The notes beneath the pieces were generated by a model. The model ran no database searches. It saw nothing but the letters and a program-made list of their open reading frames with translations, and was not told the origin of the DNA. A stretch of 64,000 nt of DNA from Massilia aquatica (GTDB lineage: Bacteria; Pseudomonadota; Gammaproteobacteria; Burkholderiales; Burkholderiaceae_D): the NCBI RefSeq assembly GCF_011682045.1, contig NZ_VVIW01000009.1:1-64000 (forward strand), in the 5' to 3' direction. Shown here piece after piece: positions 1-54,281 of the stretch. Position 1 is the first letter of the stretch. Each line of letters starts with the position of its first letter. Made by a program: the position numbers and the translations under genes.

Positions 1-597
1 CCAGGCCAGCGGCGCGGCCAGCGCCATGCCGTGCGCCACGGCCACGCCGGGCGCGGCCGGCAGCAGCGCCAGGCGCTCGACGCCCGCCTCGAGCGCCTGC
101 AACACCAGCGGCAGCCAGACGTCGGCGCGCCAGTCGGCCACGATCGCCAGCCCAGCCGCGCCGAGCACGGCGTCCGGCAGGCAGGCGCGCCCGAGGGTGT
201 CGAGCGGATGGGCGATCGCGCCCACCAGCGGCTCGACCAGCACCAGCGCCGCCGCCAGGCAGCGCGGGGCGGCGCGGCCGCTCGCCAGCGCCGCGCCATC
301 CAGGCGCAGCCGCAGAGGCGGCAGCTGCGCACCGAGGCAGGGCGTGGCGCCGGCCAGCCAGGCGGCCAGCACGCCTTCGACCAGCGCCGCCGGCGCGTCG
401 GCGCCAAGGCCGACCAGCTCGTGCGGGCGCACCTCATGCCGCCGCAGTGCATCGACCAGTTGCCCGATGCGCTCGGCCATGGCCGCGCCGCCTTGGCCGG
501 CGAGCACCTCGCGGGCGCCCGCGCCGCGCAGCGCAGCGCAGACCAGCGCGGCCAGTTGTGCGGGCTCGCGCGCCCGCTCGAAGAGCTTAGCTTGCAT
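1..597 (-). CDS. N-terminal part of an unidentified enzyme, possibly adenylate-forming (cut by window edge)
   Basis: An open frame runs from an ATG at 597 to the left edge without a stop, so only about 199 residues are visible. It starts MQAKLFERAREPAQL. A GGGAG ribosome site lies about 9 bases upstream, inside the end of the MetA-like gene, which it overlaps by 11 bp. This makes it the next cistron of the NRPS operon. Residues around 50-90 (ELVGLGADAPAALVEGVLAA, then WLAGATPC) resemble the N-terminal part of AMP-binding ligases, where an aerobic ligase scans for free substrate. The diagnostic TSGTTG-type loop would lie outside the window. The assignment is weak and the protein could be something else. 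The coding call itself is good because frame, coupling and composition agree. Confidence 0.55.
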   Translation of the reverse strand, partial: MQAKLFERAREPAQLAALVCAALRGAGAREVLAGQGGAAMAERIGQLVDALRRHEVRPHELVGLGADAPAALVEGVLAAWLAGATPCLGAQLPPLRLRLDGAALASGRAAPRCLAAALVLVEPLVGAIAHPLDTLGRACLPDAVLGAAGLAIVADWRADVWLPLVLQALEAGVERLALLPAAPGVAVAHGMALAAPLAW

Positions 598-1438
598 GCT
601 GGTGCACTCCCTCTGCCATGCCGGCCGGGGCCGGCAGCGCGCGCTTGCGCTCCATCGCCAGGCGCAGCCACGCCGCCAGCAGGGCGCGGCTGTTGGCGCG
701 CCAGCGGTTGAGCGGACGCTCCACGTCGTAGTTGAGCGGGAGCGGCGGATCTTCGCCGCGCTCGCGGGCATTGCGGTATTCCTGCATCAGGCGCTCGGTC
801 GGATAGTCCTGGTGCCCTTGCAGCATCAGGAAGCGGCAGTCGTCCGACACCACCGTGGTGTAGCCGCTGGCCTCGGACCAGTCGAGCGGCAGCAGCTTGC
901 CGGCGTCGACCGCGGCGGCGAAGCCCTCCGGCGCCATTTCCGCGTAGCGGCTCTGGGGCAGCCAGTAGCGCTCGTCCAGCCCGCTCATCAATGGGTGTTG
1001 CGGGCGCAGGTTCTGCATCTCGAACACGCCCGACAGCTTGGCCGGAAAATGTTGCTTGTCGATCCCGTAGAACACCTTGGCCAGGACCTGGGCGCCCCAG
1101 CACACCCCGGCGATCGAGCCGACCCGGGTGCTGGCGTCGCGCAGCGTCCCCACCACTTCGTCCCAGTAGGCGGCGGCGGTGAAGTCGGGATTGAGGTCCA
1201 TCGCCGCGCCGGTCAGCAGCAGCGCGTCGCAGCCATCGATGTCGCCCGGGTCGTAGTAGCGGTGGGTCGCGGCCAGGATCTCCTGGTTGCTGCTGCGGTA
1301 GGCATGGTTGCGCAGCCGCACCCAGCACACCTCGGTTCCGGCAGGCAAAGCCTGGGCCATATAATCGAAATACACTTCGGCCTGCGGCATCAGGTTGATG
1401 ATCGCCACGCGGGCATTGGGATTGCTTGCAGTTGTCAT
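587..1438 (-). CDS. MetA-like homoserine O-acyltransferase family protein in the NRPS operon
   Basis: This 283-residue protein has the MetA (class I glutamine-amidotransferase-like) fold signature. The nucleophile region is AGVCWGAQVLAKVFYGI, with Cys at the elbow. The catalytic region GHQDY keeps His but has Asp where E. coli MetA has Glu (GHPEY). The C-terminal NRWRANSRALLAAWL matches the usual end of the family. MetA enzymes transfer succinyl or acetyl from CoA to homoserine. Here the gene starts with an ATGA overlap on the NRPS stop codon, so a biosynthetic role is likely, such as O-acylating an amino-acid building block or the product. The length is slightly below the usual 300 or so residues. 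The acyl donor and acceptor cannot be read from sequence. The family assignment is firm and the role is inferred. Confidence 0.85.
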   Translation of the reverse strand: MTTASNPNARVAIINLMPQAEVYFDYMAQALPAGTEVCWVRLRNHAYRSSNQEILAATHRYYDPGDIDGCDALLLTGAAMDLNPDFTAAAYWDEVVGTLRDASTRVGSIAGVCWGAQVLAKVFYGIDKQHFPAKLSGVFEMQNLRPQHPLMSGLDERYWLPQSRYAEMAPEGFAAAVDAGKLLPLDWSEASGYTTVVSDDCRFLMLQGHQDYPTERLMQEYRNARERGEDPPLPLNYDVERPLNRWRANSRALLAAWLRLAMERKRALPAPAGMAEGVHQHAS

Positions 1439-4400
1439 GCGCTCACCTCAAGATTGTTGTTTTCGGCGTTCGCCAGGGCCGCCATCAGGCGCTCGGCGAC
1501 CAGGTGCGGACTATGGCGGACGAAATAATGGTCGCCCGGCAGTACCTGCAGTTCGCAGCGCTCGGCGCACAGGCGCCAGGCGCTCCATTGCCCTGCGTAG
1601 CCGCTGGTGAGCGGATCGGACTGGCCGATCAGGCAGGTCAGGGGCGTGCGCACCTTTTCCCCGGCCTGGCCCAGGCGCGCCCGGAAGTAGCGGCGCGCTT
1701 CGGCGCCGTCATGGCGCAGCAGGCGGCCGATCGCCTGCGCTTCGGCCGCGCTGAGCTCGCCGAAACCGCCCAGCCGGGCAAAGCCCATGGCCAGGTCCTG
1801 GTCGGACTGGCCGGCGAACGGGTCATGTTCGAGCTCGGCGGCCTGGCGCGGCGGATAGCTCGCGCCCACCACCAGCGCGCGCAGGTCGTGCGCCCCGCTT
1901 TCGAGGCGGCGCGCGATCTCGGTGGCCAGAGCCACCCCGCCGCAATGGCCGTACACCAGCAGCGGGCGCCCGCAAAAGCGCGCGGCCGCCTGCACCACGG
2001 CCGCCGCCACGCTCTCGATCGGCTGCAAGGGCTCGTCGCTGCCGTCGTGCTCGTGGCCGGGCAGGCGCACCGCGTGCACGCTGATGCGCCCTTCGAGCGC
2101 CTCGGCCAGGCCCTGGTACACCCCGGCATGGCCGCCGCCGTAGGGCACGCAGATCGCCACCGGGGCGGCCTCGGCGCGCGTGAGCGCCACCAGCACGCCG
2201 GCCTCGCGCTGCCCGGCGCCGAGGTGCTCGGCCAAGGCCCGCACCGAACGGTACTGGTACAGCGCGGTGACCGGAATCGGCCGGCCCGGCAGGCGGCAGG
2301 CGCGCAGCGCTTTCAGGGAATTGCCGCCCAGGTCGAAGAAGCTGGTGCCCACGTCGAGCAGTTCCGGGTCCATCCCGAGCACCCCGGCCCAGTGGCGCGC
2401 CAGGGCTTCTTCGAGCGCATTGGCCGGGGCGCTGCGGCAGGACGTGCCGGCGGCGAACTGCGCGGGCGGCAGGGCGCGCCGGTCGATCTTGCCATTCGCG
2501 CTCAGGGGCAGCTTGTCGAGCAGCACGAACGCTTCCGGCACCAGGGTTTCCGGGAGCCGCTGGCGCAGCCAGGCGCGCAGGGTCGCGCCCAGGGTGTCCG
2601 CGCCCGGCCCGGCCGCCACCACGTAGGCGGCCAGGCGCCGCTCGCCGGCCGCGTCGGCCGGGGCGCTGACCAGGCAGGCCGCCACCAGCGGGTGGCTGCG
2701 CAAGGTGGCCTCGATCTCGCCAAGCTCGATGCGGATGCCGCGGATCTTGACCTGGAAATCGATCCGCCCGATCAGTTCGATGGTACCGTCGGCCCCGAAG
2801 CGGGCCAGGTCGCCGGTACGGTACAGGCGCTCGCCCGGGACGCCCGGCCAGGGGTGCGGAATGAATTTCTCGGCGCTCAGGCCAGGACGCTCGAAATAGC
2901 CGGCGGCGATGCCGGCCCCGCCCAGCAGCAGCTCGCCCGGCACCCCGACCGGCGTGGCCTCGAGGTTCTGGTCGACGATGTAGGCGCTCTGGTTGCCCAT
3001 CGGCTTGCCGTAAGGAATGCTGCGCCAGGCCGGGTCGACCGCGCCCACCGGGAAGGTGAGCGAATCGATCGACAGCTCGGTGGCGCCGCCGGCGCTGACC
3101 ACCTGCGCCTGCGGGAAGGCGGCGCGCACCCGGTCCGGCATCGACAGGGGAATCCAGTCGCCGTCGAGCAGGGCCAGGCGCAGGCCGGGCGCGCCGTGGC
3201 CGTGGCCGTCCTGCGCGGCGGCATCGGCAGCCGTCTCGAGCAGGGCGTCCATCAGCGCCGGGGCCGAGTGCCACAGGGTGATGCCTTCGCGCCCGAGCAG
3301 CGCCAGCCAGTGCGCCGGGTCTTTCTCGTGTCCGGGCGAGGGGAACACCAGGGTGGCGCCGGCCTGCAGGGTCCAGAACAGGTCGCACACCGAAATGTCG
3401 AAGCTCAGCGACGAGACGCACAGGGTACGGTCTTGCGGGCCGATGTTGAACATGCGGCAGTAGTCTTCGACGTTGTTGACCCGCCCGCGGTGGTTCAGCA
3501 TCACGCCCTTGGGATGGCCGGACGAGCCGGAGGTATAGATCACGTAGGCGAACGCATCCGGCGACACGTCCAGCGCCAGCGGCTCGCCCGGCAGCGCGGC
3601 GTAGCGTTCGCGGTCGGCGTCGAGCGCGATGCGCGCCAGTTCCAGCCCGGCCGTGGCGGCGCCGCCGCTGCCCCAGGTGAGCAAGACCTTCAGGCGCGCA
3701 TCCCCGGCCATGTAGGCGATGCGCGCCGGCGGATAGGCCGGGTCGAGCGGCACGTAGGCCGCCCCCGCCTTCATGATCGCCAGCATGCCGATCACGGTGG
3801 CGGCCGACTTGTCGGTGCACAGGCCGACCCGGTCGCCCGGCCCGACCCCCTGTTGCTGAAGATAGCGGGCCAGCTGGTTGGCGCGGGTGTCGAGTTCGGC
3901 GTAGCTGAGCCGTTCGTCGCCGGCCACCAGCGCCAGCTGCTGCGGGCGCAGGCTGGCCTGGCGCTCGGCCAGGCCGTGCAAGGTCTGGCGCTCGGCGTAC
4001 GGGAAGGCTGTCGCGTTCCACTGGCCCAGCATGCGTTCGGCATGCGCTCCGGCCACCGGCGCCACTTCCCACATGAAGCGCTGGGGCGCGCTGCCCAGGC
4101 GCTCGACCAGGCTGTGCAACTGGTCCAGCATGGCCGCGGCCACCTCGTCGTCGAGCCGGTGCTGGTAATAAGTCAGCACCAGCATGATGCGCTCGCCGGG
4201 AAAGGCGCGCACCGCGAGCGGGTAGTTGGTCGGCCCGGTCCAGCTGTAATCAGTCAGGCGGATGCCTTCCCAGCTTTGCAGGTGGCCTTCTTCGAGCGGG
4301 TAGTTCTGGAAACTGAGCAGGGTTTCGAACAGCGGGTTGCCACGCTGTAGCGGCGACAGTTCCTGGATCCGGCCCAGCCCGGTGTATTGATGTTCCTGCA

Positions 4401-5376
4401 CTTCGAACAGGGCGCGCTGGAGCGCGAGCAGCCAGTCGCCGACGCGCGCCTGCGGATCGATGTCGACCAGCAGCGGCACGGCATTGATGAACAGGCCGAC
4501 CATCTGCTCGACCCCGCTCAGTTCGGGCGGGCGGCCGGCGGTGGTGGTGCCGAACATCACCTGGCGCTCGCCGCTGTAGGCGCCCAGCAGGCGCGCCCAG
4601 GCGCCATGCACGAGCGCACTGAGCGAGACCCCCAGCCGGGCGCAGCTGGATTTGACGAGCTCGCTGGCGCGCTCGTCAAGCTGGACCGACAAGGTCACCT
4701 CGGCCTTGCCGCCGCCTTCGTGCACGCCCTGGCCGCGGTCGACCGCGAGCCGGGTCGGCGCGCTGCAGCCGGCCAGGTAGCGTTGCCAGAAGCGTTCGTC
4801 GGCCTGCTGGTCGCGCCGGCGCAGATAGTCGATGAAGTCGGCGAACGGGCGCGCCGCCGGCAGCACCGGGGGCCGTCCGCAGCGCACCAGTTCGGCGTAG
4901 CAGCCGAGCACTTCGTGCAGCACCAGGCCGAAACTCCAGCCGTCGAGCAGGATGTGGTGGTGGCTCCAGACGAACAGGTGGTGCGCGGCGTCGAGCTGGC
5001 GCGCGGTCAGGCGCATCAGCGGCGCCTTGGCCATGTCGAAACCCTGGTCGCGGTCGGCCTGCAACAGCGCCTGCCAGGCCTGCTCCGGCGCCGCCTGCGC
5101 ACGCCAGTCGGCCCAGTCGAGCGCCAGGCGCACCTGGCGTCCGACCACCTGCATCGGTTCCTGCGCCTGCTTGTAGGCGAACGCGGTGCGCAGCACCGGG
5201 TGGCGCGCCAGGACCCAGTTCCAGGCCTGCTCGAACGCGGCGCGATCGAGCGTGCCGCGAATCGAACAGCAGATCTGCTCGAAGTAGGTCGGTTCGCCCG
5301 GGCGGCTGACCGTGTGGAACAGCAAGCCCTGCTGGAGCGGGGAGAGCGGATAGACCGCCTCGATATGTGTGCTCAT
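1435..5376 (-). CDS. Terminal NRPS module C-A-T-TE with a cysteine thioesterase
   Basis: This 1313-residue protein reads condensation (about 1-440, active site HHHILLDG), adenylation (about 460-960, TSGSSGHPKG and YRTGDLARF), thiolation (about 985-1060, LGGNSL) and thioesterase (about 1075-1313). In the TE the nucleophile elbow is GHCGG, so Cys1145 (codon 1942-1944) replaces the normal Ser. Asp1254 and His1283 complete the triad. Cys-type TEs are known for strained-ring release: obafluorin beta-lactone and sulfazecin beta-lactam. The adenylation pocket reads approximately D-I-C-H-L-D-A-I-D-K, which I do not recognise; Asp at the 331 position occurs in several codes for basic substrates. The ATG at 5376 has an AGGAAG site and lies 9 bp after the SHMT-like gene. 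No epimerase domain is present. Release chemistry is inferred. Confidence 0.95.
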   Translation of the reverse strand: MSTHIEAVYPLSPLQQGLLFHTVSRPGEPTYFEQICCSIRGTLDRAAFEQAWNWVLARHPVLRTAFAYKQAQEPMQVVGRQVRLALDWADWRAQAAPEQAWQALLQADRDQGFDMAKAPLMRLTARQLDAAHHLFVWSHHHILLDGWSFGLVLHEVLGCYAELVRCGRPPVLPAARPFADFIDYLRRRDQQADERFWQRYLAGCSAPTRLAVDRGQGVHEGGGKAEVTLSVQLDERASELVKSSCARLGVSLSALVHGAWARLLGAYSGERQVMFGTTTAGRPPELSGVEQMVGLFINAVPLLVDIDPQARVGDWLLALQRALFEVQEHQYTGLGRIQELSPLQRGNPLFETLLSFQNYPLEEGHLQSWEGIRLTDYSWTGPTNYPLAVRAFPGERIMLVLTYYQHRLDDEVAAAMLDQLHSLVERLGSAPQRFMWEVAPVAGAHAERMLGQWNATAFPYAERQTLHGLAERQASLRPQQLALVAGDERLSYAELDTRANQLARYLQQQGVGPGDRVGLCTDKSAATVIGMLAIMKAGAAYVPLDPAYPPARIAYMAGDARLKVLLTWGSGGAATAGLELARIALDADRERYAALPGEPLALDVSPDAFAYVIYTSGSSGHPKGVMLNHRGRVNNVEDYCRMFNIGPQDRTLCVSSLSFDISVCDLFWTLQAGATLVFPSPGHEKDPAHWLALLGREGITLWHSAPALMDALLETAADAAAQDGHGHGAPGLRLALLDGDWIPLSMPDRVRAAFPQAQVVSAGGATELSIDSLTFPVGAVDPAWRSIPYGKPMGNQSAYIVDQNLEATPVGVPGELLLGGAGIAAGYFERPGLSAEKFIPHPWPGVPGERLYRTGDLARFGADGTIELIGRIDFQVKIRGIRIELGEIEATLRSHPLVAACLVSAPADAAGERRLAAYVVAAGPGADTLGATLRAWLRQRLPETLVPEAFVLLDKLPLSANGKIDRRALPPAQFAAGTSCRSAPANALEEALARHWAGVLGMDPELLDVGTSFFDLGGNSLKALRACRLPGRPIPVTALYQYRSVRALAEHLGAGQREAGVLVALTRAEAAPVAICVPYGGGHAGVYQGLAEALEGRISVHAVRLPGHEHDGSDEPLQPIESVAAAVVQAAARFCGRPLLVYGHCGGVALATEIARRLESGAHDLRALVVGASYPPRQAAELEHDPFAGQSDQDLAMGFARLGGFGELSAAEAQAIGRLLRHDGAEARRYFRARLGQAGEKVRTPLTCLIGQSDPLTSGYAGQWSAWRLCAERCELQVLPGDHYFVRHSPHLVAERLMAALANAENNNLEVSA

Positions 5377-5385
5377 GGGGGCTTC

Positions 5386-6738
5386 CTAGTGGGCTTGGTC
5401 GATGGCGCCGTCGTACGGCAGCGGGAAACGCTGGCACAGCGCGTGCACTGCGGCCGAGACCTCGGCCCGCACCGGCTCGGGCAGCAGGGCCTCGCCGCCG
5501 GCGCCGACGCCGGTGTGGCGCAGCACCTCGTCGATCAGTTCGGCCGCCAGGGCCATCTCGGGCGCCTGCATGCCGCGCAGGGCCGCCGTGTTGGTGCCCA
5601 GGCGTACGCCGCTGGCGACCTGGGCCCCGCGCAGGTCGCCCGGGATCTTGTTCTTGTTGACCAGGATCCCGCACGACTCGAGCGCCGCCTGCGCCACCAG
5701 GCCGTTGATGGACGAGCGCACCCGGAACAGCACGATGTGGTTGTCGGTGCCGCCGCCAACGACCTGGTAGTCGCGCGCGGCCATCGCCGCCGCCAGCGCG
5801 TCGGCGTTGGCGCGGATGCGCAGCGCCAGTTCGCGAAATCCCGGTTCCAGCAGGCGCCCCATGGCGCGCGCCTTGGCCGCGATGGTGTGCACTTCGGGCG
5901 AGCCCTGCATCAGCGGGAACACCGCGCTCTGGATCCGCTCGGACAGGCTGCGCTTGCCGTCGTCGCTCACGGTGGCGGCGTCGCGGCCCATCATGATCAG
6001 GGCCCCGCGCGGGCCGAACAGCTGCTTGAAGGTGCAGGTGGTGGTGAAATGGGCGGCGTCGATCGAGCTCGGATGCAGGCCGGCCGCGACCAGGCCGGCG
6101 ATGTGGGTGATGTCGGCCAGCACGAAGGCGCCGACCTCGTCGGCGATGCCGCGGATGCGCTCGAAATCGATGGTGCGGGTGTACGAGGTGGTGCCGCACA
6201 CGATGAGGCGCGGGCGGTGTTCGCGCGCCTGTTCGCGCAGCTGCCCGTAGTCGATCAGACCCTTGCTGTCGAGGCCATAGGTATGCGAGCGGAACAGCCG
6301 TCCGCTCAGGTTGGCCGGCGCGCCATGGGTCAAGTGCCCGCCCTGGTCGAGCGCCAGTCCGAGGATGGCCTCGCCCGGCCGCAGCACCGCCTGCATCACC
6401 GTGTGGTTGGCGAAGCTGGCGCAGTGCGGCTGCACGTTGACATAGGCGGCGCCGAACACTTTCCGGGCGCGCTCGATGGCCAGGCGCTCGGCCTGGTCGA
6501 CATAGGTGCAGCCGGCATGGTAGCGGTTGCCCGGATAGCCCTCGGCGGTCACGTTGACGATGCTCGCGCCGGCCGCCGCCATCACCGACGGATCGGTGCC
6601 CCCGCACGACGCGACCAGCGACAAGGTGTTGCGCTGGCGCTCGTGTTCGCGTTCGAGGATCTCGTACAACACCGGATCGTCGCGCCGCATGGTGGTGACG
6701 CCGTGGGCCAGGTAGTGGCCGATGTTAGTCGATTGCAT
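5386..6738 (-). CDS. SHMT-fold PLP enzyme, candidate threonine transaldolase or aldolase
   Basis: This 450-residue fold-type I PLP protein aligns along its whole length with serine hydroxymethyltransferase: AEGYPGNRYHAGC, GGHLTHGAPANLSG, Asp209 in LADITHIAGL, and Lys238 in TTTCTFKQLFGPRG as the PLP lysine. Several invariant SHMT positions are changed. The I-A-S-E-N segment is V-A-S-C-G, so the Glu needed for the folate reaction is Cys45. The THK motif before the lysine is TFK, and HSGSQAN is HCASFAN. This argues against housekeeping glycine-serine interconversion. In natural-product clusters such proteins act as L-threonine transaldolases or aldolases that make beta-hydroxy amino acids. It sits between the KS protein and the Cys-TE NRPS with short spacing. 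Exact chemistry is inferred. Confidence 0.9.
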   Translation of the reverse strand: MQSTNIGHYLAHGVTTMRRDDPVLYEILEREHERQRNTLSLVASCGGTDPSVMAAAGASIVNVTAEGYPGNRYHAGCTYVDQAERLAIERARKVFGAAYVNVQPHCASFANHTVMQAVLRPGEAILGLALDQGGHLTHGAPANLSGRLFRSHTYGLDSKGLIDYGQLREQAREHRPRLIVCGTTSYTRTIDFERIRGIADEVGAFVLADITHIAGLVAAGLHPSSIDAAHFTTTCTFKQLFGPRGALIMMGRDAATVSDDGKRSLSERIQSAVFPLMQGSPEVHTIAAKARAMGRLLEPGFRELALRIRANADALAAAMAARDYQVVGGGTDNHIVLFRVRSSINGLVAQAALESCGILVNKNKIPGDLRGAQVASGVRLGTNTAALRGMQAPEMALAAELIDEVLRHTGVGAGGEALLPEPVRAEVSAAVHALCQRFPLPYDGAIDQAH

Positions 6739-10652: not shown

Positions 10653-13600
10653 CTATAAGCGAAAACTGAAGTCGGCGGCGGCCGGCCGGCCCGCGCCGGC
10701 GTGTTCCAGCGCCGCGGCGATCGCCGCGACCGTGTTCAACTGGAACAGGTCGACCAGCTTGAGCGCGCCGCGATAGCGCTGGTCGATGCGGTCGAACAGG
10801 CGCGTCATGCTCAGCGACGTTCCGCCGGCGGCGAAGAAGCTGACGCTGCGTCCCACCTCGGCGCCGAGCACCTCGCGCCAGAGCGCGGCGACTTCCTGTT
10901 CCAGCGCACCGCGCGGGGGCGCGGCGGCGGCGCCGTCGGCGTGCGGCGGCGCGGCCAGCGCGGCCAGCGCTTTGCGGTCGAGCTTGCCGTTGCGGGTGAG
11001 CGGGAAGCGCTCGACGAACTGCAGCCAGGCCGGCACCATGTAGGCCGGCAGGCGCGCCGCCAGACCGGCCAGCAGCGGCTGCGGGTCGAAACGCTGCGCA
11101 CCGGTGACGAAGCCGACCAGGTACTGGTCGCTGGCGCCGCGCTCGAGCAGCACGGCGGCGTCGGCGATGCGCGCATCGAGCCCGGCCAGCACGCGCTCGA
11201 TCTCGCCCGGTTCGATGCGGATGCCGCGCAGCTTGACCTGCTCGTCGATCCGGCCCAGATAGTCGAGGCGGCCGTCGCCGCTCCAGCGCGCCAGGTCGCC
11301 GCTGCGGTACATGCGCGCCCCGGGCTCCTGCGAGAAGGGATCGGGCAGGAACGCTGCGGCGGTCATGCCGGGCCGGTTCAGGTAGCCACGCGCGACGCCC
11401 TGCCCGCCCAGGTACAGTTCGCCAGGCACGCCCACCGGCAAGGCGTTCAGGCCGGCGTCGAGCACATACGCGCGGGTGCCGGAGAGGGCGCGGCCGATCT
11501 CCGGGGCGCGCCCCGGGGCCGTATCGGCGCAGTCGTGCACGGTGGCGCACACGCTCGCCTCGGTCGGGCCATAGCCGTTCCACAGGCGCACGCAAGAACG
11601 CCAGCGCTGCGCCAGCTCGGCCGGCAGCGCCTCGCCGGCCAGCACCACGCAGCGCAGCGTCCCGGCCGCCGGCGCCAGCAGCGCCAGGTTGGACGGCGGC
11701 AGGGTCAGGTGGGTGATGGCGCGCTCGGCCAGGGTGGCCGCCAGCGCCGTGCCGGGCAACAGCGCGTGCGCGGCGGCCGTCAGGTGCAGGCAGGCGCCGC
11801 TCAGCAGCGCCATCGCCACATCCCACACTGAGGCGTCGAAGCTGACCGGGGCGTATTGCAGCACGTGGGCACCGGGGCCGGCGCCGAAACTGTCGCGATG
11901 CAGCGCCTGCAGCTGAGCCAGCCCGCGATGGCTCAGCATGACCCCTTTCGGCGCGCCCGTCGAACCGGAGGTGTAAATGATGTAGGCCAGGTGCTCCGCG
12001 CTCAGGCGCGCGCCCGGCAGGGCCACGCCGGGGTCGGCCTCGGGAATGGCGTCGGCCAACAGGCACGCGTGCGGCGCCAGGCCCAGCCGCGCCGCCTGCG
12101 CGCCGTCGGTGATGTGCAGGCGCACGCCGGCGTCGGCCGCGAGCGCGCGCAGGCGCTCGTCCGGCAAGAACGGATCGAGGCAAAGGAAGGCGGCGCCGGC
12201 CTTGGACACGGCCAGCAGGGCGACGATCGCCGCGCAGCTCTTGGGCAGCAGCAGCGCCACCCGGTCTTCCAGCGCCACCCCGGCGCCCACCAGGGCGCGC
12301 GCCATGCGCTCCGAGGCCAGGTCCAGTTCGCGGTAGCTGAGCACGCCGTTGTCGTCGCGCACGGCCGGCGCATCGGGCCAGGCCGCCGCCTGGGCGGCGA
12401 ACAGCGCGGGCAAGGTTGCCGGCAGCGGCGCGGCGCCATGCGCCACGGGCGGCGCCGCGCCCAGCGCCAGGCGCGAGAGCGGCGTGCGGGCCTGCCCGGG
12501 CGCCTGCGCCAGCAGCGCTTCGTAGCAGTCGGCCATGGCGCCGATGGTGGCCGGCTCGAACAGGTCGCTCCGGTAATCCCAGGCCGCGTGCCAGCCATCG
12601 TCGTCGCGCCCAATCATCAGCGTGACGTCGTACTGGGTGGCCAGCGGCGGCACGTCCACGCTGGCGCAGCGCAGGCCGGTGGGCAGGCTGCGCGCGCGCA
12701 CTGTATCGTTAAGCACGAACATGGTCTGGATCAGCGGCGTGTGGTTCACGCTGCGCTCGACGTCGAGCGCAGCGATGACCAGTTCGAACGGCGCGCGCTG
12801 GTGATCGAAGGCGGCCAGGCTGTCCTGGCGCGTGCGCAGCAGCAGTTGTTCGAAGCAGGGGTCGGCGGCGAAACCGGCGCGCAGCACCAGGGTGTTGAGC
12901 AGGCAGCCGACCACCTCGCCGGCGCCGGCCACGTCGCGGTTGGCGATCGGCGTGCCGACCAGCACCTCGTCCTGGCGCGACAGGCGCGCCAGCAAGGCCT
13001 GGTACACGCTGAGCAGGGCCACGAACGGGGTGGCCCCGAGCGGCCGGGCCAGCGCCAGCAGGGCCGCGAGCGCCTGCCCGTCGAGGCGGCGGCGCAGCCG
13101 CTCGCCGCGGTACGACGAGGCCTGCGCCGGCGCATGGTCCCAGGCCAGCTGCAGGCGCGGAGGCAGGCCGGCCAGGTGGCCGCGCCAGTAGTCCAGGTCG
13201 GGCGCGAGCAGCGCCGGCCGGTCCAGGTGGGTGCGCTGCCAGCGTGCGTAGTCGCGCGTCGACAGGGCCGGCGCCGGCGCCGGCGCATTGCCGGCGCGCA
13301 CGGCGTTGTAAGCCTCGAACAGCTGGTCGAACAGCAGCTCGATCGACCAGGCGTCGGCCACCAGGTGGTGGATCACCAGGCCCAGCACCGCCGCCTCCGG
13401 CGCGCGCAGCAGCACCCAGCGCGCCGGCGCTTCGCAAGCCAGGTCGAACGGGCTCTCGAGCAGGCCGCGCAGGACCGGGGCGCAGGCTTGCAGGCTGTCG
13501 ATGCCGGATTCCTGCAGCCAGGCCGCCTGCCCGGCCACGGCGCGTTGGCGCGGGACGCCGTCGGCGCCGCTGTCGACGCGCAGGCGCAGCGCTTCGTGGC

Positions 13601-16600
13601 GCTCGGTCAGCCATTGCAGGGCGCGGCGCAAGGCCTCGGTGTCGAGCGCGCCGTCGAGGCGCACGGCGGCGCCGATATTGAGCATGGAACTGTCCGGACG
13701 CATGCGCTGGAGCAGCCACATGCGCTCCTGGGCGAACGACAGCGGCGCGGCGCCCTGGTCGGCGCTGGCGACCAGTGGCGCCACGTCGGGTTCCTGCATG
13801 CGCAGCTCGTCGGCCAGCGCCGCCAGGGCGCGCACGGTGCGGTGCTTGAAGATATCGGACAGGCGCAGGCGCACCTGCAGCCGTTCGCGCACGCCCACCA
13901 GCAACTGCATCGCCAGCAGCGAATGCCCGCCGAGCGCGACGAAGTCGGCGTCGGCGCCGAGCGGGCCGACCTTGAGCACCTGCGCCATCAGCGCGGCCAG
14001 TGCGCTTTCGCTGGCGCTGGCCGCGCCGGCGCCATCCTGGCCGGGCGCGGCCGCGCCGGTTGCGGGCGCGGGCAGGAGCGCGCGCTCGATCTTGCCGTTG
14101 GCATTGAGCGGAAACTGCGCCAGCCGCACCAGGTAGTGCGGCACCATGAAGGCCGGCAGCTCGTCCGCCAGCGCGGCGCGCACGGCCTCCTCCCCGGCCG
14201 CGCCGGTCCAGTAGGCCACCAGATGCTCGGCGCCGCCCACCGTGCGCACCAGCACCAGCGCCTGCTCGACGCCGGCCACCGCGCGCGCCCGGCTTTCGAT
14301 CTCCGCGGTCTCGATGCGGAAACCGCGCAGCTTGACCTGATGGTCGAAGCGCCCCAGGTAGCGCAACTGGCCCTGCTCGCTCACGCGCACCCGGTCGCCG
14401 GTGCGGTACATGCGCCCGCCCGCCAGGAAGGGATCGGGCAGGAAGCGTTCGGCGCTCAGGGCCGGCCGGCCCAGGTAGCCGAGCGCGACCCCGGCCCCGC
14501 CCAGGTACAGTTCGCCGTCGGCGCCGAGCGGCGCCGGCAGCAGCCGGCTGTCGAGCACATACGCGCTGGTGCCGTCGATCGGCGCACCGATGGCCGGCTC
14601 GTCGGTAGCGCCGCGCGCCACTTCGCACCAGGTCGAGTAGGTAGTGTCTTCGGACGGCCCGTACAGGTTGAACACGCGCACTGCGGGCGCGGCGGCGTGG
14701 ATGGCCTCGACCAGGGTCCTGGCCAGCGCTTCGCCGGCCAGGTTGACCACCCGCACCTGGCCGGCCAGGGCGCCGGCGCGCAGCAGCTCCGTCATCGCCG
14801 ACGGTACCGTATTGATCAGGGTCGGCACCGGCGCGGCCTGTTCAACCAGGTCGAGCACGGTATTGACCAGGCGCACGGTTCCGCCGCGCGCCAGCGGCAG
14901 GAAAATCTCGAACACCGACAGGTCGAAGCAGACCGAAGTACTGGCCAGCACCATCGACAGGTGCTGCGCGCCGAACGCGCCGGCGGCCCAGCCGAGAAAG
15001 GCGCGCAAGGCCCGGTGCGGGATCGCCACGCCCTTCGGACGCCCGGTCGAGCCGGAGGTGTAGATCAGGTAGGCCGTGCTCTCCGGCGGCGCGGCCGGCC
15101 AGGCCGGGCAGGCGCCCGGCTGCGGCGGCGCCAGCGCCGCGAGGTCGAGCAGGCTGGCCACGCCCGGCGCCAGCACGCCGCGCGTGGCCGGCTCGACCAG
15201 GATCAGCGCGCAGCGCGCATCCTCGGCGATAAACCCCAGCCGGCCGGGCGGATAGGCCGGGTCGAACGGCACGTAGGCGGCCCCGCAGGCGAGCACCGCG
15301 AACAGGCTCGCCACCAGGTCGGACTGGCGGCGCAGGCAGACCCCGACGAAGTCGCCCGGCCCGACCCCGGCCGCCTGCAGGCCGGCCCGGATCGCGGCGA
15401 TGCGCCCGGCCAGTTCGGCGTAGCTGAGCGTGCGTTCGGCGTGCAGCGCCGGCGCGTCCGGCTGGGCCCGGGCCTGGGCGGCAAAGGCGGCGACCGGATC
15501 GAGCGGCGCCGGCATGCGCTGCGCCAGGCGCAGCGAGGCCAGCACGGCCTGTTCGGCCTGGGTCGCCGGAAGCAGGGCGGACCAGGCGCGCGCGGGCGCC
15601 TCGAGCAGCGCCGTCAACAGCATGTGCCAGTGCGCGAGCATGCGCCGGGCCAGCGCTTGCGGCACGGTGTCGGCGCGATATTCCAGTGCCGCATACACCC
15701 CGGCGGCGGCGCCGTCCGCGCCGGCGGCCAGCGCGGCGTCGATCTGCAGCGTGAGGTCGAACTTGGCATGGCTGTGCTCGACAAAATGCCAGGCCGCCCG
15801 CACGCCCTCGATGTGCGGCAGCGGGCACGGGCCCGGCTGGACCACGAGCATCGATTGCAGCGGGAAGCCGCCGAGGCGCTCGCCGAGCGCGTCGAGCGGC
15901 ACGTCGAGCGCGCAGGCGTCGAAGGCCTGGTCGCGCACGCGCCCGACCAGCGCGCTCCAGGTGTCGGCAGGGTCGACCCGCACGCGCACCGGGACCGTAT
16001 TGACGAACAGGCCATAGGTGTGCGCATCCTGTTCGTGCGCGCGCCCTGCCACCGGGACCCCGAACACGACCTCCTCCTGGCCGGTAAACCGGGCCAGCAG
16101 CACCGCGTAAGCGGTGGCGTACAGCACGAATGGCGTGGCGCCGTGATGGCGCGCCTGCTGCTCCACGCGCGCCACCAGCGCGGGTGCCAGCGGCATGCGC
16201 TCGGTTGAGGCCGGGGTTGCCTGCTCCAGGCGCACGCCGGCGAAGGGCAAGTCGAGCACGGGGGAGGCGCCGGCGAGCAGCGCCGCCGCCTGATCGAGCT
16301 CGGCGGCGAATGCGCGGCTCGCCAGGCGCGCGCTTTCGCGCGCCACCGCGTCGCGGTAGTCGCCGGGGACGCTGTCCCAGCGCGGCCGGGCGCCGCGCGC
16401 AATGGCGCCGTAGGCTTGGCCGAGTTCGGCGAACAGCAGGCCCGACGACCAGCCATCGGTAACGATATGGTGGATGCTCAGCACCAGCAGCGCCTCGCGC
16501 TCGCCGAGCATCAGCAGGCTGGCGCGGTACAGCGGGCCGCCGGCCAGGTCGAAGGGCTGCGCCAGTTCCCCGTCGAGCCAGGCGCGCACGGCGCCGCGAT

Positions 16601-16877
16601 CGCACTGGTGCACGGCCAGGCGCACGGGATGGGCGGCCGGCGGCAGCACGCGCTGGGTCAGGCCGGCGCTGTCGAGATCGAACACCGCGCGCAACTGCGC
16701 GTGGCGCTCGACCAGCGCGGCCAGGGCTTGTTCCATCCAGGCCGCATCGATGCGGCCGGCCAGGCTGATCGCCTCGGTCACGGTGTAGGCGCGGCTGTCC
16801 GGATAGCGGTGCTGGAGCGCCCACAGCCGGCGCTGGGCCGAGGATGCGGCAAAGCTGTTGCTGTTATCACGAGGCAT
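10653..16877 (-). CDS. Bimodular NRPS, C-A-T-C-A-T
   Basis: The 2074-residue protein starts at the ATG at 16877, with GAGGAAG upstream, rather than at any earlier in-frame start inside the thioesterase gene. Domains are C1 (about 1-440, HHIVTDGW at 136), A1 (about 465-960, TSGSTGRPKG), T1 (about 1030, LGGHSLLAM), C2 (about 1080-1500, HHLVADAW, with Ala for the usual Gly), A2 (about 1520-1990, TSGSTGAPKG) and T2 (about 2030, AGGTSLSM). Reading the pocket by hand, A1 gives D-L-F-N-N-A-L-T-Y-K, which I recall as an alanine code. A2 gives D-A-W-T-V-A-G-V-C-K, close to phenylalanine-type codes. C1 at the N terminus with no preceding carrier suggests an acyl-accepting starter C domain. It is the first assembly-line protein of the operon. 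Confidence 0.95.
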   Translation of the reverse strand: MPRDNSNSFAASSAQRRLWALQHRYPDSRAYTVTEAISLAGRIDAAWMEQALAALVERHAQLRAVFDLDSAGLTQRVLPPAAHPVRLAVHQCDRGAVRAWLDGELAQPFDLAGGPLYRASLLMLGEREALLVLSIHHIVTDGWSSGLLFAELGQAYGAIARGARPRWDSVPGDYRDAVARESARLASRAFAAELDQAAALLAGASPVLDLPFAGVRLEQATPASTERMPLAPALVARVEQQARHHGATPFVLYATAYAVLLARFTGQEEVVFGVPVAGRAHEQDAHTYGLFVNTVPVRVRVDPADTWSALVGRVRDQAFDACALDVPLDALGERLGGFPLQSMLVVQPGPCPLPHIEGVRAAWHFVEHSHAKFDLTLQIDAALAAGADGAAAGVYAALEYRADTVPQALARRMLAHWHMLLTALLEAPARAWSALLPATQAEQAVLASLRLAQRMPAPLDPVAAFAAQARAQPDAPALHAERTLSYAELAGRIAAIRAGLQAAGVGPGDFVGVCLRRQSDLVASLFAVLACGAAYVPFDPAYPPGRLGFIAEDARCALILVEPATRGVLAPGVASLLDLAALAPPQPGACPAWPAAPPESTAYLIYTSGSTGRPKGVAIPHRALRAFLGWAAGAFGAQHLSMVLASTSVCFDLSVFEIFLPLARGGTVRLVNTVLDLVEQAAPVPTLINTVPSAMTELLRAGALAGQVRVVNLAGEALARTLVEAIHAAAPAVRVFNLYGPSEDTTYSTWCEVARGATDEPAIGAPIDGTSAYVLDSRLLPAPLGADGELYLGGAGVALGYLGRPALSAERFLPDPFLAGGRMYRTGDRVRVSEQGQLRYLGRFDHQVKLRGFRIETAEIESRARAVAGVEQALVLVRTVGGAEHLVAYWTGAAGEEAVRAALADELPAFMVPHYLVRLAQFPLNANGKIERALLPAPATGAAAPGQDGAGAASASESALAALMAQVLKVGPLGADADFVALGGHSLLAMQLLVGVRERLQVRLRLSDIFKHRTVRALAALADELRMQEPDVAPLVASADQGAAPLSFAQERMWLLQRMRPDSSMLNIGAAVRLDGALDTEALRRALQWLTERHEALRLRVDSGADGVPRQRAVAGQAAWLQESGIDSLQACAPVLRGLLESPFDLACEAPARWVLLRAPEAAVLGLVIHHLVADAWSIELLFDQLFEAYNAVRAGNAPAPAPALSTRDYARWQRTHLDRPALLAPDLDYWRGHLAGLPPRLQLAWDHAPAQASSYRGERLRRRLDGQALAALLALARPLGATPFVALLSVYQALLARLSRQDEVLVGTPIANRDVAGAGEVVGCLLNTLVLRAGFAADPCFEQLLLRTRQDSLAAFDHQRAPFELVIAALDVERSVNHTPLIQTMFVLNDTVRARSLPTGLRCASVDVPPLATQYDVTLMIGRDDDGWHAAWDYRSDLFEPATIGAMADCYEALLAQAPGQARTPLSRLALGAAPPVAHGAAPLPATLPALFAAQAAAWPDAPAVRDDNGVLSYRELDLASERMARALVGAGVALEDRVALLLPKSCAAIVALLAVSKAGAAFLCLDPFLPDERLRALAADAGVRLHITDGAQAARLGLAPHACLLADAIPEADPGVALPGARLSAEHLAYIIYTSGSTGAPKGVMLSHRGLAQLQALHRDSFGAGPGAHVLQYAPVSFDASVWDVAMALLSGACLHLTAAAHALLPGTALAATLAERAITHLTLPPSNLALLAPAAGTLRCVVLAGEALPAELAQRWRSCVRLWNGYGPTEASVCATVHDCADTAPGRAPEIGRALSGTRAYVLDAGLNALPVGVPGELYLGGQGVARGYLNRPGMTAAAFLPDPFSQEPGARMYRSGDLARWSGDGRLDYLGRIDEQVKLRGIRIEPGEIERVLAGLDARIADAAVLLERGASDQYLVGFVTGAQRFDPQPLLAGLAARLPAYMVPAWLQFVERFPLTRNGKLDRKALAALAAPPHADGAAAAPPRGALEQEVAALWREVLGAEVGRSVSFFAAGGTSLSMTRLFDRIDQRYRGALKLVDLFQLNTVAAIAAALEHAGAGRPAAADFSFRL

Positions 16878-16894: not shown

Positions 16895-17602
16895 TCAGGT
16901 GAGCGCGGCATCGGCCAGCGCGTCGTGCGCCAGGTCGGCGCGGATACCGCGGCAGATGCTGGCGCGTTGCGAACGGATGACGAAGTGGTCGCCCGGGTAA
17001 AGCCGCACGCGCGCCCCGTTGGCGCCGAGCCGGGTCCATTCGCGCAGGTCGGCGCCGGGGACGAACGCGTCCGCTTCGGCGCCGAACACGGTGAGCGGGC
17101 AGCGCACCGTTTCTTGCGGCGACGCCTGCCAGGTTTCCACCACGCGGAAATCGGCGCGCAGGATCGGCAGGAACATCGACATCAGTTCCGCATTGGCCAG
17201 CACGTCGGGGTCGGTGCCGCTCATCGCCGCCAGCTCGGCGGCGAGCTGCGCATCGGACATCTGGTGGCGCAGCGGCGGCACGGGCGGCAGGAAGGGCGCG
17301 CGCGAGCCGCCCACGAACAGCCGCCGCAGGGTGCGCCCCTGCCCTTCCAGGTGGCACGCCAGCGCATGCGCGACGGTCGAGCCGAAGCTGTAGCCGAGCA
17401 GCGCCAGCGGACCGGGCGTGTCGCACTGCCGGGCCAGGTCGGCCACCAGTTCGGGCATACTGTGCAGCAGCGCCTCGCGATAGCGCCGCCCACGCCCCGG
17501 CAGTTCGGCGCCGACCACCTGCGCCACCGGTCCCAAGGCCTCCTGCCAGCCGCGGAACACCTCGCTGTCGCCGCCCGCATAGGGAATGCAGAACAGCATC
17601 AT
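16895..17602 (-). CDS. Type II thioesterase
   Basis: This 235-residue alpha/beta hydrolase has the GrsT/RifR pattern: CIPYAGGDSEVF at the start, nucleophile GYSFGS, an acidic residue in FGAEADAFV, and His in YPGDHFVI. Such proteins remove misloaded or stalled acyl groups from carrier domains. The start is placed at the ATGATG at 17602, which overlaps the mbtH stop (ATGA). The frame upstream of it would run into mbtH and is not used. It is followed 17 bp later by the bimodular NRPS. Unlike the TE built into the last NRPS module, this one keeps the normal Ser. Confidence 0.92.
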   Translation of the reverse strand: MMLFCIPYAGGDSEVFRGWQEALGPVAQVVGAELPGRGRRYREALLHSMPELVADLARQCDTPGPLALLGYSFGSTVAHALACHLEGQGRTLRRLFVGGSRAPFLPPVPPLRHQMSDAQLAAELAAMSGTDPDVLANAELMSMFLPILRADFRVVETWQASPQETVRCPLTVFGAEADAFVPGADLREWTRLGANGARVRLYPGDHFVIRSQRASICRGIRADLAHDALADAALT

Positions 17603-17820
17603 TGGGCGTCCGCCTGCTCGCGCAGGCTGCGCGGGCGCATGTCGGACCAGTGCGCCTCGATGTAGTCGAGGCAAGCCTGTTTCGGCGCCGGCGCCGGCCC
17701 CGTGGCGCGCCAGCCGGCGGGCAGGCCGCGGTAGGAAGGCCAGATGGAATACTGCTCCTCGTCGTTGATCACGACCTGGTACAGGGGTTCGTTCATGCTC
17801 TCGTTCAGGCTATCGTTCAT
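17599..17820 (-). CDS. MbtH-family NRPS accessory protein
   Basis: This 73-residue protein carries the MbtH signature: NDEEQYSIWPSYRGLPAGW, followed by CLDYIEAHWSDMRP. MbtH proteins bind adenylation domains and are often needed for their solubility or activity, so it probably partners one or more of the three A domains encoded downstream. The ATG at 17820 has AAGGA upstream and overlaps the aminotransferase stop by 4 bp. Both ends therefore show ATGA coupling, which implies translation in fixed ratio with its neighbours. Confidence 0.95.
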   Translation of the reverse strand: MNDSLNESMNEPLYQVVINDEEQYSIWPSYRGLPAGWRATGPAPAPKQACLDYIEAHWSDMRPRSLREQADAQ

Positions 17821-18932
17821 GGCTGTTTCCTTGTGCCTACCGGCCATTGCCAGCCCTTGGGGGCGGGCGCCAGACCGTGATGAATTTCCAGGAGGGACTT
17901 GCGCAGCAGCGGCGCCACGCTCGGGGCCGGCAGGGGCAGGCGCAGGCCGGACTCGTCGCCGAGCGCCTCGACCGAGGCGATCACCGCGCCCGTGCCGCAG
18001 CCGAACACTTCGATGTCGGCGCCGCCGCCGATGGCCTCGACCAGGGCATCGATGGCGATCGGCCGCTCTTGCATCGCCAGGCCGAGCGGGCCGGCCAGCG
18101 CCAGCAGGCTGTCGCGCGTGATGCCGGGCAAGATGGTGTCCGACAAGGGGGGCGTCAACAGCGTCTCGCCCCAGCGCACGAAGACATTCATCGCGGTGAA
18201 TTCTTCAAGGTGGGTGCGACTGTTGGCGTCGAGCCAGAGCAGTTGGTGAAAGCCTTGTTCGCGCAGGGGCGCGGCGGCCGCGAAACTGGCCGCGTAATTG
18301 CCGGCCGCCTTGACGTTGCCGGTGCCGCCGGCGCCGGCGCGGCTGTAGCGGCGCTCGATCCAGGCCTTGATCGGCGTGGTGAAAAACGCGTCCGAGGGCG
18401 TGGCCACCACCACGAAGCAGTATTCGGTCGAAGGCGTGACCGAAAGGTGGTCGGTGATGCCGAACATGGCCGGGCGCAGGTAGAGCGACTGGGCCAGGCG
18501 CTCCGGCACCAGCTTGTCGAGGTGCGCCACCAGTTGCTCGAGCGTTTCGACGAACACCTCTTCATCGATGCGCGGCATGCCCAGGCGCTGCGCCGAGCGG
18601 TTGAAGCGGCTGGCATGGTCGTAGGGCCGGAACAGCAGTGCCGGGCTCTGGAACAGCGCGCCGAGGTTGCGGTACGCCTTCATGCCTTCGAAAATGGCTT
18701 GCCCGTAGTGCAAGGCCTGGGCGTGCGGCGCCAGCTGGAGCGGCTCGAGCGCGGTCAGGCGTGGCGTTTCCCAGGCCCCGTCGCGGTAGTAGGCAAGCGC
18801 CATGATGGGCGCCATCAGCGTGCCGAAGCCGAGCGGGTCGGGCAAGCGCATCTGCTCGACGCCGGCCCTCAGTTCGCTGCTGGCAGGCGCGATCCGGCCG
18901 CACCCGGCCGGCGGTTTCATAACAGTAGACAT
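17817..18932 (-). CDS. Branched-chain-type class IV aminotransferase
   Basis: The 371-residue product is a long-form IlvE-like PLP enzyme: HYGQAIFEGMKAYR, the PLP lysine in GTGNVKAAGNYAAS, and the phosphate-binding GCGTGAVI. The ATG at 18932 with GGAG 8 bases upstream is preferred over a TTG 18 bases earlier that lies inside the oxygenase gene. It starts 5 bp after that gene. Branched-chain aminotransferases interconvert Val, Leu or Ile and their 2-oxo acids. In this operon it more likely makes or recycles a building block, for example aminating a 2-oxo acid. A second housekeeping copy elsewhere in the genome is expected but cannot be seen here. Confidence 0.93.
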   Translation of the reverse strand: MSTVMKPPAGCGRIAPASSELRAGVEQMRLPDPLGFGTLMAPIMALAYYRDGAWETPRLTALEPLQLAPHAQALHYGQAIFEGMKAYRNLGALFQSPALLFRPYDHASRFNRSAQRLGMPRIDEEVFVETLEQLVAHLDKLVPERLAQSLYLRPAMFGITDHLSVTPSTEYCFVVVATPSDAFFTTPIKAWIERRYSRAGAGGTGNVKAAGNYAASFAAAAPLREQGFHQLLWLDANSRTHLEEFTAMNVFVRWGETLLTPPLSDTILPGITRDSLLALAGPLGLAMQERPIAIDALVEAIGGGADIEVFGCGTGAVIASVEALGDESGLRLPLPAPSVAPLLRKSLLEIHHGLAPAPKGWQWPVGTRKQP

Positions 18933-29343: not shown

Positions 29344-29510
29344 AGCTCGTTAAATATTGCACATCCCGCCTCGTGCCGGCCATCGCGCTCACCGGGGTGC
29401 TGATCTCGGCAAGCGGCTGCTTCACGGCGTTTGCGCCGAAGCGCGACTTTTGTACCGGCGACCCGAAAGATACCTCGCTGCCGCGCTGCAAGCCGCAGGC
29501 GCCCCAGTAA
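29340..29510 (+). CDS. Small lipoprotein (56 aa) after the lipase gene
   Basis: A TTG start at 29340 follows GGAGG at six bases' distance and overlaps the lipase stop. The product begins MKLVKYCTSRLVPAIALTG and has a lipobox ending A-S-G-C at about residue 27. The mature part has about 30 residues, with two further Cys (DFCTGDP, PRCKPQ) that could form a disulphide. It ends in TAATG with the next gene. Lipoproteins at this place in type VI lipase operons are often immunity proteins, but this one is far shorter than known Tli3 proteins. It could instead be an entericidin-like small protein. Confidence 0.7.
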   Translation: MKLVKYCTSRLVPAIALTGVLISASGCFTAFAPKRDFCTGDPKDTSLPRCKPQAPQ

Positions 29511-51426: not shown

Positions 51427-51500
51427 GGCCGCCTTGGTTACGAACTTTACTGAGTATGACCAGCTTCGGCGTTTGGCGCCACACCGCAATCTTTTGCGCC

Positions 51501-51576
51501 GTCTCCCCCGCGCAGGCGGGGGCCCATAGCACCGCTGCTCTTGGGTGCTATAGCCCCCCGCCTGCGCGGGGGAGAC
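51501..51576. repeat. Long GC-rich inverted repeat (REP-like element) at the kdpC end
   Basis: Left arm 51501-51533 and right arm 51544-51576 are inverted copies of 33 bp (core CCCCCGCGCAGGCGGGGG) with about two mismatches and a 10-bp loop. The form is that of the dispersed palindromic repeats of many proteobacteria. It overlaps the last codons of kdpC and lies between kdpC and kdpD. It could act as an attenuator or mRNA stabiliser, which would set kdpFABC above kdpDE. No T-run follows, so it is not a typical terminator. Confidence 0.85.
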
Positions 51577-52150: not shown

Positions 52151-52163
52151 GAGAATGTCCTTT

Positions 52164-54266: not shown

Positions 54267-54281
54267 ATGCTCCGCATGAAA

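What the first reader, a model, noticed from the sequence alone, without database searches (positions are those of the whole stretch)
1435..6738. Cys-thioesterase NRPS next to a divergent SHMT-type enzyme: candidate beta-lactone or other strained-ring pathway
The terminal thioesterase has GHCGG, with a TGC codon at the nucleophile (1942-1944), and keeps Asp and His. The gene directly before it encodes an SHMT-fold enzyme without the folate-reaction Glu. In obafluorin biosynthesis a threonine transaldolase of this fold makes a beta-hydroxy amino acid, and a Cys-TE closes it to a beta-lactone; in sulfazecin a Cys-TE closes a beta-lactam. Here the pair sits in a different context (Ala-like and Phe-like modules, a KS, formyltransferase, oxygenase, MetA-like enzyme). 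This suggests a new scaffold ending in a reactive ring.
Basis: partly seen in the sequence, partly recalled or inferred. Interest (0 to 1): 0.85.

Follow-up and report, generated by a model that had tools for sequence, protein, structure and literature searches.

The report
Strained-ring peptide cluster, likely PheRS-targeting
These genes belong to an antibiotic-type gene cluster shared by distant bacteria; it probably makes a reactive small peptide, and most relatives found carry a spare copy of the enzyme that loads phenylalanine onto tRNA, which hints at what the compound attacks.

Summary
The Cys-thioesterase is real: TGC at 1942-1944 with matching Asp and His. Its predicted fold matches ObiF1 (beta-lactone) first and SulM (beta-lactam) second among solved structures. 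The PLP protein keeps the folate Glu and does not group with transaldolase-like proteins. It carries the TAEG--RYH signature of PbzB-type enzymes, which build alpha-substituted serines, and the last A domain has a serine-like code. I therefore predict a quaternary alpha-substituted-serine beta-lactone rather than an obafluorin-like one. The same cluster occurs in Azospirillum, five Streptomyces and Actinophytocola. In six of these eight clusters a second phenylalanyl-tRNA synthetase (PheS+PheT) follows the AL-KR-T-E gene; the five Streptomyces copies have the FPF phenylalanine-pocket loop changed to YPY. This mirrors ObaO (ThrRS) in obafluorin and predicts PheRS as the target. The window's own genome has only one PheRS; an RND pump follows its cluster instead. 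No product is known to me; no chemistry was tested.

The parts
1435..5376 (-). terminal NRPS module C-A-T-TE (P0001); A code DICHLDAIDK (Ser-like)
   Evidence: Pfam; code read; the nine core positions are the same in 8 of 8 clusters except L/V and I/V at two places
1498..2154 (-). thioesterase domain with Cys nucleophile (codon 1942-1944), Asp 1615-1617, His 1528-1530
5386..6738 (-). PbzB-type SHMT (TAEG--RYH motif), predicted to make an alpha-substituted serine
   Evidence: PMC10098953
6777..10643 (-). KS - degenerate AT (GHGSG, no Ser) - T - C
   Evidence: Pfam; motifs (AT remnant named by eye)
10653..16877 (-). NRPS C-A(Ala-like, DLFNNALTY)-T-C-A(Phe-like, DAWTVAGVC)-T
   Evidence: Pfam; codes; start
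16895..17602 (-). type II thioesterase (Ser nucleophile, GYSFG)
   Evidence: Pfam
17599..17820 (-). MbtH-like protein
   Evidence: named by eye; homologues beside the other cluster genes in 8 of 8 clusters
17817..18932 (-). branched-chain-type aminotransferase (class IV)
18938..19729 (-). 2-oxoglutarate oxygenase, HxD motif (WelO5/HilA-like)
19782..20480 (-). formyltransferase-like protein, HPSLLP motif without the usual Asn
   Evidence: missing Asn judged from recalled motif
587..1438 (-). MetA-like acyltransferase, GVCWGAQ nucleophile motif kept
1..597 (-). first part of an AL-KR-T-E protein, cut by the contig end; continues by homology on contigs C59 and C30

Best explanation
This is a hybrid NRPS/KS gene cluster for a short N-acyl-(Ala, Phe-like) peptide ending in an alpha-substituted serine. 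Proposed order: (1, inferred from enzyme class) the PbzB-type SHMT adds a hydroxymethyl group from methylene-tetrahydrofolate to alanine, serine or a similar amino acid, giving alpha-methylserine, 2-hydroxymethylserine or a relative; (2, inferred from the code) the last A domain loads it; (3, inferred from homology) the chain is passed to the active-site Cys of the TE, and the CH2-OH of the terminal residue attacks the thioester, releasing an alpha,alpha-disubstituted amino beta-lactone. (4, inferred from gene linkage in relatives) the product targets phenylalanyl-tRNA synthetase, helped by its Phe-like residue; six of eight family members protect themselves with a second PheRS, pocket-altered in five, while this genome and Actinophytocola have efflux genes at that place. 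Shown: gene content, Cys-TE and its fold neighbours, SHMT clade and motif, conservation in 8 species, PheRS linkage in 6 of 8. The AL-KR-T-E protein, oxygenase, aminotransferase, formyltransferase-like and MetA-like steps stay unassigned.
For: TE: ObiF1 best by sequence, ObiF1 then SulM best by Foldseek on a model of mean pLDDT 91.5. SHMT: TAEG--RYH in 8 of 8 cluster copies, and in PbzB; starred 14-row clade with PbzB (7qcw) and SHMTs beside NRPS genes or on plasmids, with the housekeeping and transaldolase-like rows outside; PbzB makes 2-hydroxymethylserine in vitro, and FmoH and AsmD are given as the same type (PMC10098953); Thr/His at these two places mark alpha-methylserine hydroxymethyltransferases (PMC6411801). 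The genome has a separate housekeeping-type SHMT at C27. A code DICH(L/V)DA(I/V)D in 8 of 8. PheS+PheT directly after AL-KR-T-E in 6 of 8 clusters; five of five Streptomyces carriers hold 2 PheS against 7 of the other 198 genomes drawn from the genus of one carrier; FPF to YPY in 5 of 5 of their copies, a loop described as conserved across all bacterial species. Precedent: ObaO, a ThrRS homologue, protects against the beta-lactone obafluorin, which binds covalently to a Tyr of ThrRS (abstract).
Against: No product, no assay. The TE family forms its own clade (100) and the backbone linking it to the ObiF1 clade is unresolved, and by sequence alone type II TEs rank above SulM, so ring type is by analogy. 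The window's genome holds only one PheS and one PheT, with normal FPF, and Actinophytocola only one PheS. The Azospirillum PheS keeps FPF; FPF-to-YPY is 2 of 25 columns that are invariant in the seven other rows and changed in all five Streptomyces copies, so the change may be part of general divergence. The five Streptomyces copies form one clade, so the PheRS link rests on perhaps two lineages. The A domain of the pbz-type NRPS on a Staphylococcus plasmid has another code (DMFAVACNW by my reading). An alpha-quaternary residue hinders amide formation.
Confidence: 0.5

Rival explanations
1. One reading: a threonine-transaldolase-like enzyme makes a beta-hydroxy amino acid with a large side chain, and the Cys-TE closes an obafluorin-like beta-lactone.
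For: Adjacent gene pair; Cys-TE related to ObiF1.
Against: The SHMT-like protein keeps the folate loop and Glu, is 43-47 percent identical to ordinary plasmid-borne SHMTs (listed rows H6-H30), whereas ObaG is given as 25 percent identical to bacterial SHMTs (PMC5490192), and clades with PbzB, not with the six transaldolase-like rows; A code is Ser-like, unlike ObiF1's D/A/W/G/C/G/M/I.
Confidence: 0.08
2. The Cys-TE does not close a strained ring: it hydrolyses, makes a larger lactone, or transfers the chain to another nucleophile (for example an ester or amide).
For: Own clade, unresolved backbone; Cys-TE clades of unknown product exist in actinobacteria; a peptide with a free hydroxyl elsewhere could be macrocyclised.
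Against: The two best fold matches both close four-membered rings; the Ser-like terminal residue would supply the matching hydroxyl.
Confidence: 0.3
3. The Cys-TE closes a beta-lactam, as in sulfazecin.
For: SulM TE is the second fold match.
Against: No sulfotransferase and no diaminopropionate-type synthesis gene among the cluster proteins scanned; the hydroxymethyl-transfer enzyme and Ser-like code point to oxygen.
Confidence: 0.05
4. The PheRS genes are not self-resistance: they hitchhike, or supply Phe-tRNA for a tRNA-dependent step.
For: Absent from 2 of 8 clusters; second PheS copies exist in 7 of 198 other genomes drawn from the genus of one carrier.
Against: Both subunits directly after the same gene in two phyla; pocket substitutions at a loop said to be conserved; no tRNA-dependent transferase family among the cluster proteins scanned.
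Confidence: 0.2

Closest known systems
Obafluorin system (ObiF1 TE, ObaG/ObiH transaldolase, ObaO ThrRS)
   Same: Cys-TE at the end of an NRPS module; a second tRNA synthetase in the cluster (in 6 of 8 relatives here)
   Different: SHMT of another kind; different A code; different synthetase (PheRS); larger hybrid assembly line; separate TE clade
Benzobactin PbzB, and by the paper's account FmoH (JBIR-34/35) and AsmD (ashimides)
   Same: TAEG--RYH motif, shared clade with PbzB, SHMT beside an NRPS
   Different: His before the PLP Lys (as in PbzB) is Phe here; no benzoxazolinate genes seen; a Cys-TE follows; FmoH and AsmD sequences were not in hand
Sulfazecin SulM TE
   Same: Cys nucleophile (FAQCNG), second-best fold match
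   Different: 21-22 percent identity in the Foldseek alignments; closes a beta-lactam (recalled: from diaminopropionate)
Azospirillum sp. B510 pAB510a cluster (about 739-769 kb of NC_013855)
   Same: the same cluster: SHMT 68, TE 62, MetA-like 71 percent identical
   Different: adds PheS, PheT and, just before it, a LuxI-type gene; fmt-like gene at the other end; two T domains in the KS protein; unannotated in the collection

Membership tests
strained-ring Cys-thioesterases (ObiF1, SulM) | Cys nucleophile with Asp and His | tested here: met
strained-ring Cys-thioesterases (ObiF1, SulM) | closest fold and sequence relatives are such TEs | tested here: met
   fold: ObiF1, then SulM. Sequence: ObiF1 first, but type II TEs (BorB, RifR) rank above SulM, and BorB above SulM
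strained-ring Cys-thioesterases (ObiF1, SulM) | inside the ObiF1 TE clade | tested here: not met
   separate 8-row clade, SH-aLRT 100; backbone open
strained-ring Cys-thioesterases (ObiF1, SulM) | product with a four-membered ring | not testable with these tools
   needs chemistry
L-threonine transaldolases | falls in the transaldolase clade | tested here: not met
   with six transaldolase-like rows from genomes with ObiF1-like TEs; no characterised transaldolase sequence was in hand
L-threonine transaldolases | SHMT folate loop (AEGYPG) replaced | tested here: not met
   loop and Glu kept in 8 of 8; absent from the transaldolase-like rows
PbzB-type SHMT | TAEG--RYH motif | tested here: met
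   8 of 8
PbzB-type SHMT | clade with PbzB, apart from housekeeping GlyA | tested here: met
   14-row clade 100/100
PbzB-type SHMT | makes an alpha-substituted serine | not testable with these tools
   needs assay
housekeeping GlyA | YAEG--RYY motif; the genome's main SHMT | tested here: not met
   motif differs; another copy with the motif at C27
clusters with a self-resistance tRNA synthetase | second synthetase linked to the cluster | tested here: inconclusive
   met in 6 of 8 clusters, not in the window's genome
clusters with a self-resistance tRNA synthetase | altered target site | tested here: inconclusive
   FPF to YPY in 5 of 5 Streptomyces copies, among 25 such changed columns; FPF kept in Azospirillum
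benzobactin clusters | benzoxazolinate gene cassette | tested here: not met
   no such family in the cluster proteins scanned

The most novel reading that the evidence does not exclude
A natural-product family, spread between Proteobacteria and Actinomycetota, of covalent PheRS inhibitors whose warhead is a quaternary alpha-substituted-serine beta-lactone, with a resistant PheRS encoded in most of the clusters.
Probability: 0.35. Interest if true: 0.9.

Novelty: new variant of a known kind. Interest (0 to 1): 0.74.

Why it matters
PheRS is pursued as an antibacterial target, and the natural inhibitors named in the passages I saw are ochratoxin A and isopatulin. A cluster that carries its own altered PheRS would name target and resistance site before isolation. 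It would also be a second case that I know of, after obafluorin, of a Cys-TE peptide aimed at a tRNA synthetase, with a different building block, making it possible to ask whether such TEs are a general route to synthetase inhibitors.

Tried and rejected
Considered and rejected: SHMT as transaldolase; TE as ordinary type II TE; P0002 as the genome's only SHMT; a second PheRS in the window's genome (one PheS and one PheT; the neighbourhood looks housekeeping by eye). Tried without result: close relatives in sampled genomes at strict cut-offs, own genome only: SHMT in the genus 1 of 17 (E<=1e-100) and order 1 of 399 (1e-125), MetA-like in the order 1 of 399 (1e-60), TE in the class 1 of 369 (1e-22); weaker relatives there were not looked at. 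Papers on 7QCW: none. PheRS with self-resistance and gene cluster: none; PheRS with beta-lactone and gene cluster: one review, not opened; a wider search: 24 papers, 15 listed, no listed title on such a system, of which I searched two for passages. The AlphaFold model of the SHMT was poor (mean pLDDT 54.6, 7 sequences), so its fold search was used only to learn that 7qcw is PbzB. I have no MIBiG or antiSMASH, so a known product cannot be excluded; subscription papers are not in the library. Whether Azospirillum B510 has another pheS could not be looked up (one search failed).

Errors of mine, mended: read some genes on the wrong strand; searches use the corrected rows. One search missed the Azospirillum Phe-like A domain (FDAAVW, not matched by my pattern); I read it by eye as DAWTVAGVC. 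The tenth code position (Lys) of the last A domain was matched in 3 of 8 by my pattern, so I compare nine. The TE tree (quick method, SH-aLRT only) used 21 of the 31 loci. The SHMT tree is rooted at the midpoint, and the tool warns of long branches among three other rows. The E. coli SHMT row is from a Y55F mutant entry, hence NKF. A-domain positions, E-domain, KS, AT and formyltransferase motifs were placed from recalled rules; no predictor was run. Transaldolase-like rows are so called from their place in genomes with ObiF1-like TEs and their altered loop.
Full report
What is there. The window is bases 1-64000 of contig C99 of a 7.47 Mb draft. On the minus strand, from 20480 down to base 1, lies one biosynthetic cluster: formyltransferase-like, 2OG oxygenase with HxD, branched-chain-type aminotransferase, MbtH, type II TE, NRPS (C-A-T-C-A-T), KS-T-C, SHMT, NRPS (C-A-T-TE), MetA-like, and a protein cut by the contig end. 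By homology to the Azospirillum protein P0006 the cut gene goes on in contig C59 and ends in C30. In the Azospirillum protein it reads as AMP-ligase, KR, T and a C-family domain with epimerase-type motifs (motif recalled); in this genome's C59 and C30 pieces Pfam shows the AMP-ligase, T and C-family parts. Directly after it on C30 come an HlyD-type adaptor and an AcrB-type RND pump, then a MATE protein.

The thioesterase. The nucleophile is Cys (TGC, 1942-1944), with Asp (1615-1617) and His (1528-1530). The best solved relative by sequence is ObiF1, E 1.9e-31, ahead of type II TEs at 1.6e-19 and SulM at 1.5e-13. An AlphaFold model (mean pLDDT 91.5) has ObiF1 as first and SulM as second fold match (E 1.1e-19 and 5.9e-16), BorB and RifR next (7.1e-15 and 1.3e-14). 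In a tree, the eight TEs of this cluster family form one clade (100); ObiF1 and five loci like it another (99); actinobacterial Cys-TEs of unknown product a third (98 for 11 rows, 92 with Embleya); the backbone is open. So it resembles the strained-ring TEs as far as structure tells, but is a separate lineage.

The PLP enzyme. Against PDB sequences the best match is 7qcw (453 bits; E. coli-type SHMT 352 bits), which one search identifies as PbzB of benzobactin biosynthesis. In the tree (32 rows) the eight family members are one clade (100/100) inside a 14-row clade (100/100) with PbzB, a Staphylococcus plasmid protein and four actinobacterial plasmid-borne SHMTs, most of them seen beside NRPS genes; housekeeping-type SHMTs, including this genome's own from C27, lie outside, and six transaldolase-like proteins from genomes with ObiF1-like TEs lie beyond a very long branch. 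All eight carry TAEG--RYH where GlyA has YAEG--RYY. I read section 11 and passages of PMC10098953: it names this motif as that of PbzB-type enzymes, shows PbzB making 2-hydroxymethylserine in vitro, and lists FmoH and AsmD as relatives. A passage of PMC6411801 says Thr and His at these places mark alpha-methylserine hydroxymethyltransferases. One clade member, from Pseudonocardia, has RYY, so the motif is not universal there.

The building block. The terminal A domain reads DICHLDAID in the window and DICHVDA(I/V)D in the other seven clusters, that is Ser-like at the side-chain His and Asp by the recalled serine code, but more open. The ObiF1 code is D/A/W/G/C/G/M/I (passage of PMC6668435). 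The pbz-type A domain of the Staphylococcus plasmid and the A domains beside the actinobacterial SHMTs read differently, so the exact residue is open. The first A domain of the cluster reads DLFNNALTY in 8 of 8; the second DAWTVA(A/G)VC in 7 of 7 printed, plus Azospirillum by eye. All eight KS proteins keep Cys-His-His, while their AT remnant lacks the Ser.

The family. tblastn of the plasmid collection gave one close cluster, on Azospirillum sp. B510 pAB510a. A scan of the 84,980-species genome collection with a TE alignment gave 31 loci, six of them the same cluster: Streptomyces albus NRRL F-4971, S. roseolilacinus, S. termitum, Streptomyces sp. ST2-7A, S. halstedii, Actinophytocola oryzae. 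Sampled genomes of the window's own genus, order and class had no match besides itself at strict cut-offs. Such a patchy spread suggests horizontal transfer (inference).

The target clue. Directly after the AL-KR-T-E gene stand pheS and pheT in Azospirillum and all five Streptomyces. Each of these five Streptomyces genomes holds exactly two PheS genes; of 199 genomes drawn from the genus of the S. albus carrier, 8 hold two, one of them that carrier itself, so 7 of 198 others, whose context I did not see. Cluster and housekeeping PheS cores are 44-48 percent identical. At the Phe-binding loop all seven other PheS rows and Azospirillum have FPF, and 5 of 5 Streptomyces cluster copies have YPY; a Glu that binds ligand in the Mycobacterium enzyme appears to match an E-to-D column, by my alignment; the motif-3 ER is SR in the five and TR in Azospirillum. 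These are among 25 columns that are invariant in the seven rows and changed in all five, so part may be plain divergence. Passages of PMC12447630 call the FPF loop conserved across all bacterial species and place its two Phe against the ligand ring. The PheS tree joins the Streptomyces and Azospirillum cluster copies only weakly (79/78), so one or two origins cannot be told. Against: Actinophytocola and the window's genome have one PheS each; in its place stand an MFS protein (Actinophytocola) and an RND pump. For Azospirillum B510 a chromosomal pheS is assumed, not checked.

Reading. A PheRS-directed peptide with a Cys-TE-made ring would parallel obafluorin, whose ThrRS copy ObaO confers resistance (passage of PMC9854587) and whose lactone binds covalently to a Tyr of ThrRS (abstract of PMC9880928). 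My steps from SHMT to alpha-substituted serine to beta-lactone are inference from class, motif and fold. Full-text searches found no listed paper on this system, within an open-licence library only.

Noticed in passing
window 24899-30985 (+): VgrG, Tle3 phospholipase effector and Tla3 adaptor genes in a row: a type VI secretion effector unit.
   Followed up: no
L039-L058 (except L046) and L104: Actinobacterial Cys-TEs with one extra residue in the nucleophile elbow (VYGHC-x-x-G); 11 of them form their own clade; products unknown; one is on Streptomyces clavuligerus pSCL4.
   Followed up: partly
L102 (Staphylococcus epidermidis plasmid NZ_CP070059): A plasmid-borne cluster with PbzB-type SHMT, NRPS and anthranilate-synthase-like genes, resembling benzobactin clusters.
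   Followed up: partly
L013:8004-8930: LuxI-type autoinducer synthase directly before the Azospirillum cluster.
   Followed up: no
L071:3457-6156: M1 aminopeptidase gene right after pheT in the S. albus cluster.
   Followed up: no
L017:15001-15714 (Caballeronia NK8) and L103 (Embleya): Further TEs with a Cys nucleophile (VYGHCVG, LYGHCLG) on large plasmids; I did not identify their systems.
   Followed up: no
window 48724-56066 and 58507-60705 (-): By eye, a potassium-transport Kdp-type operon and a heavy-metal P-type ATPase; not searched.
   Followed up: no
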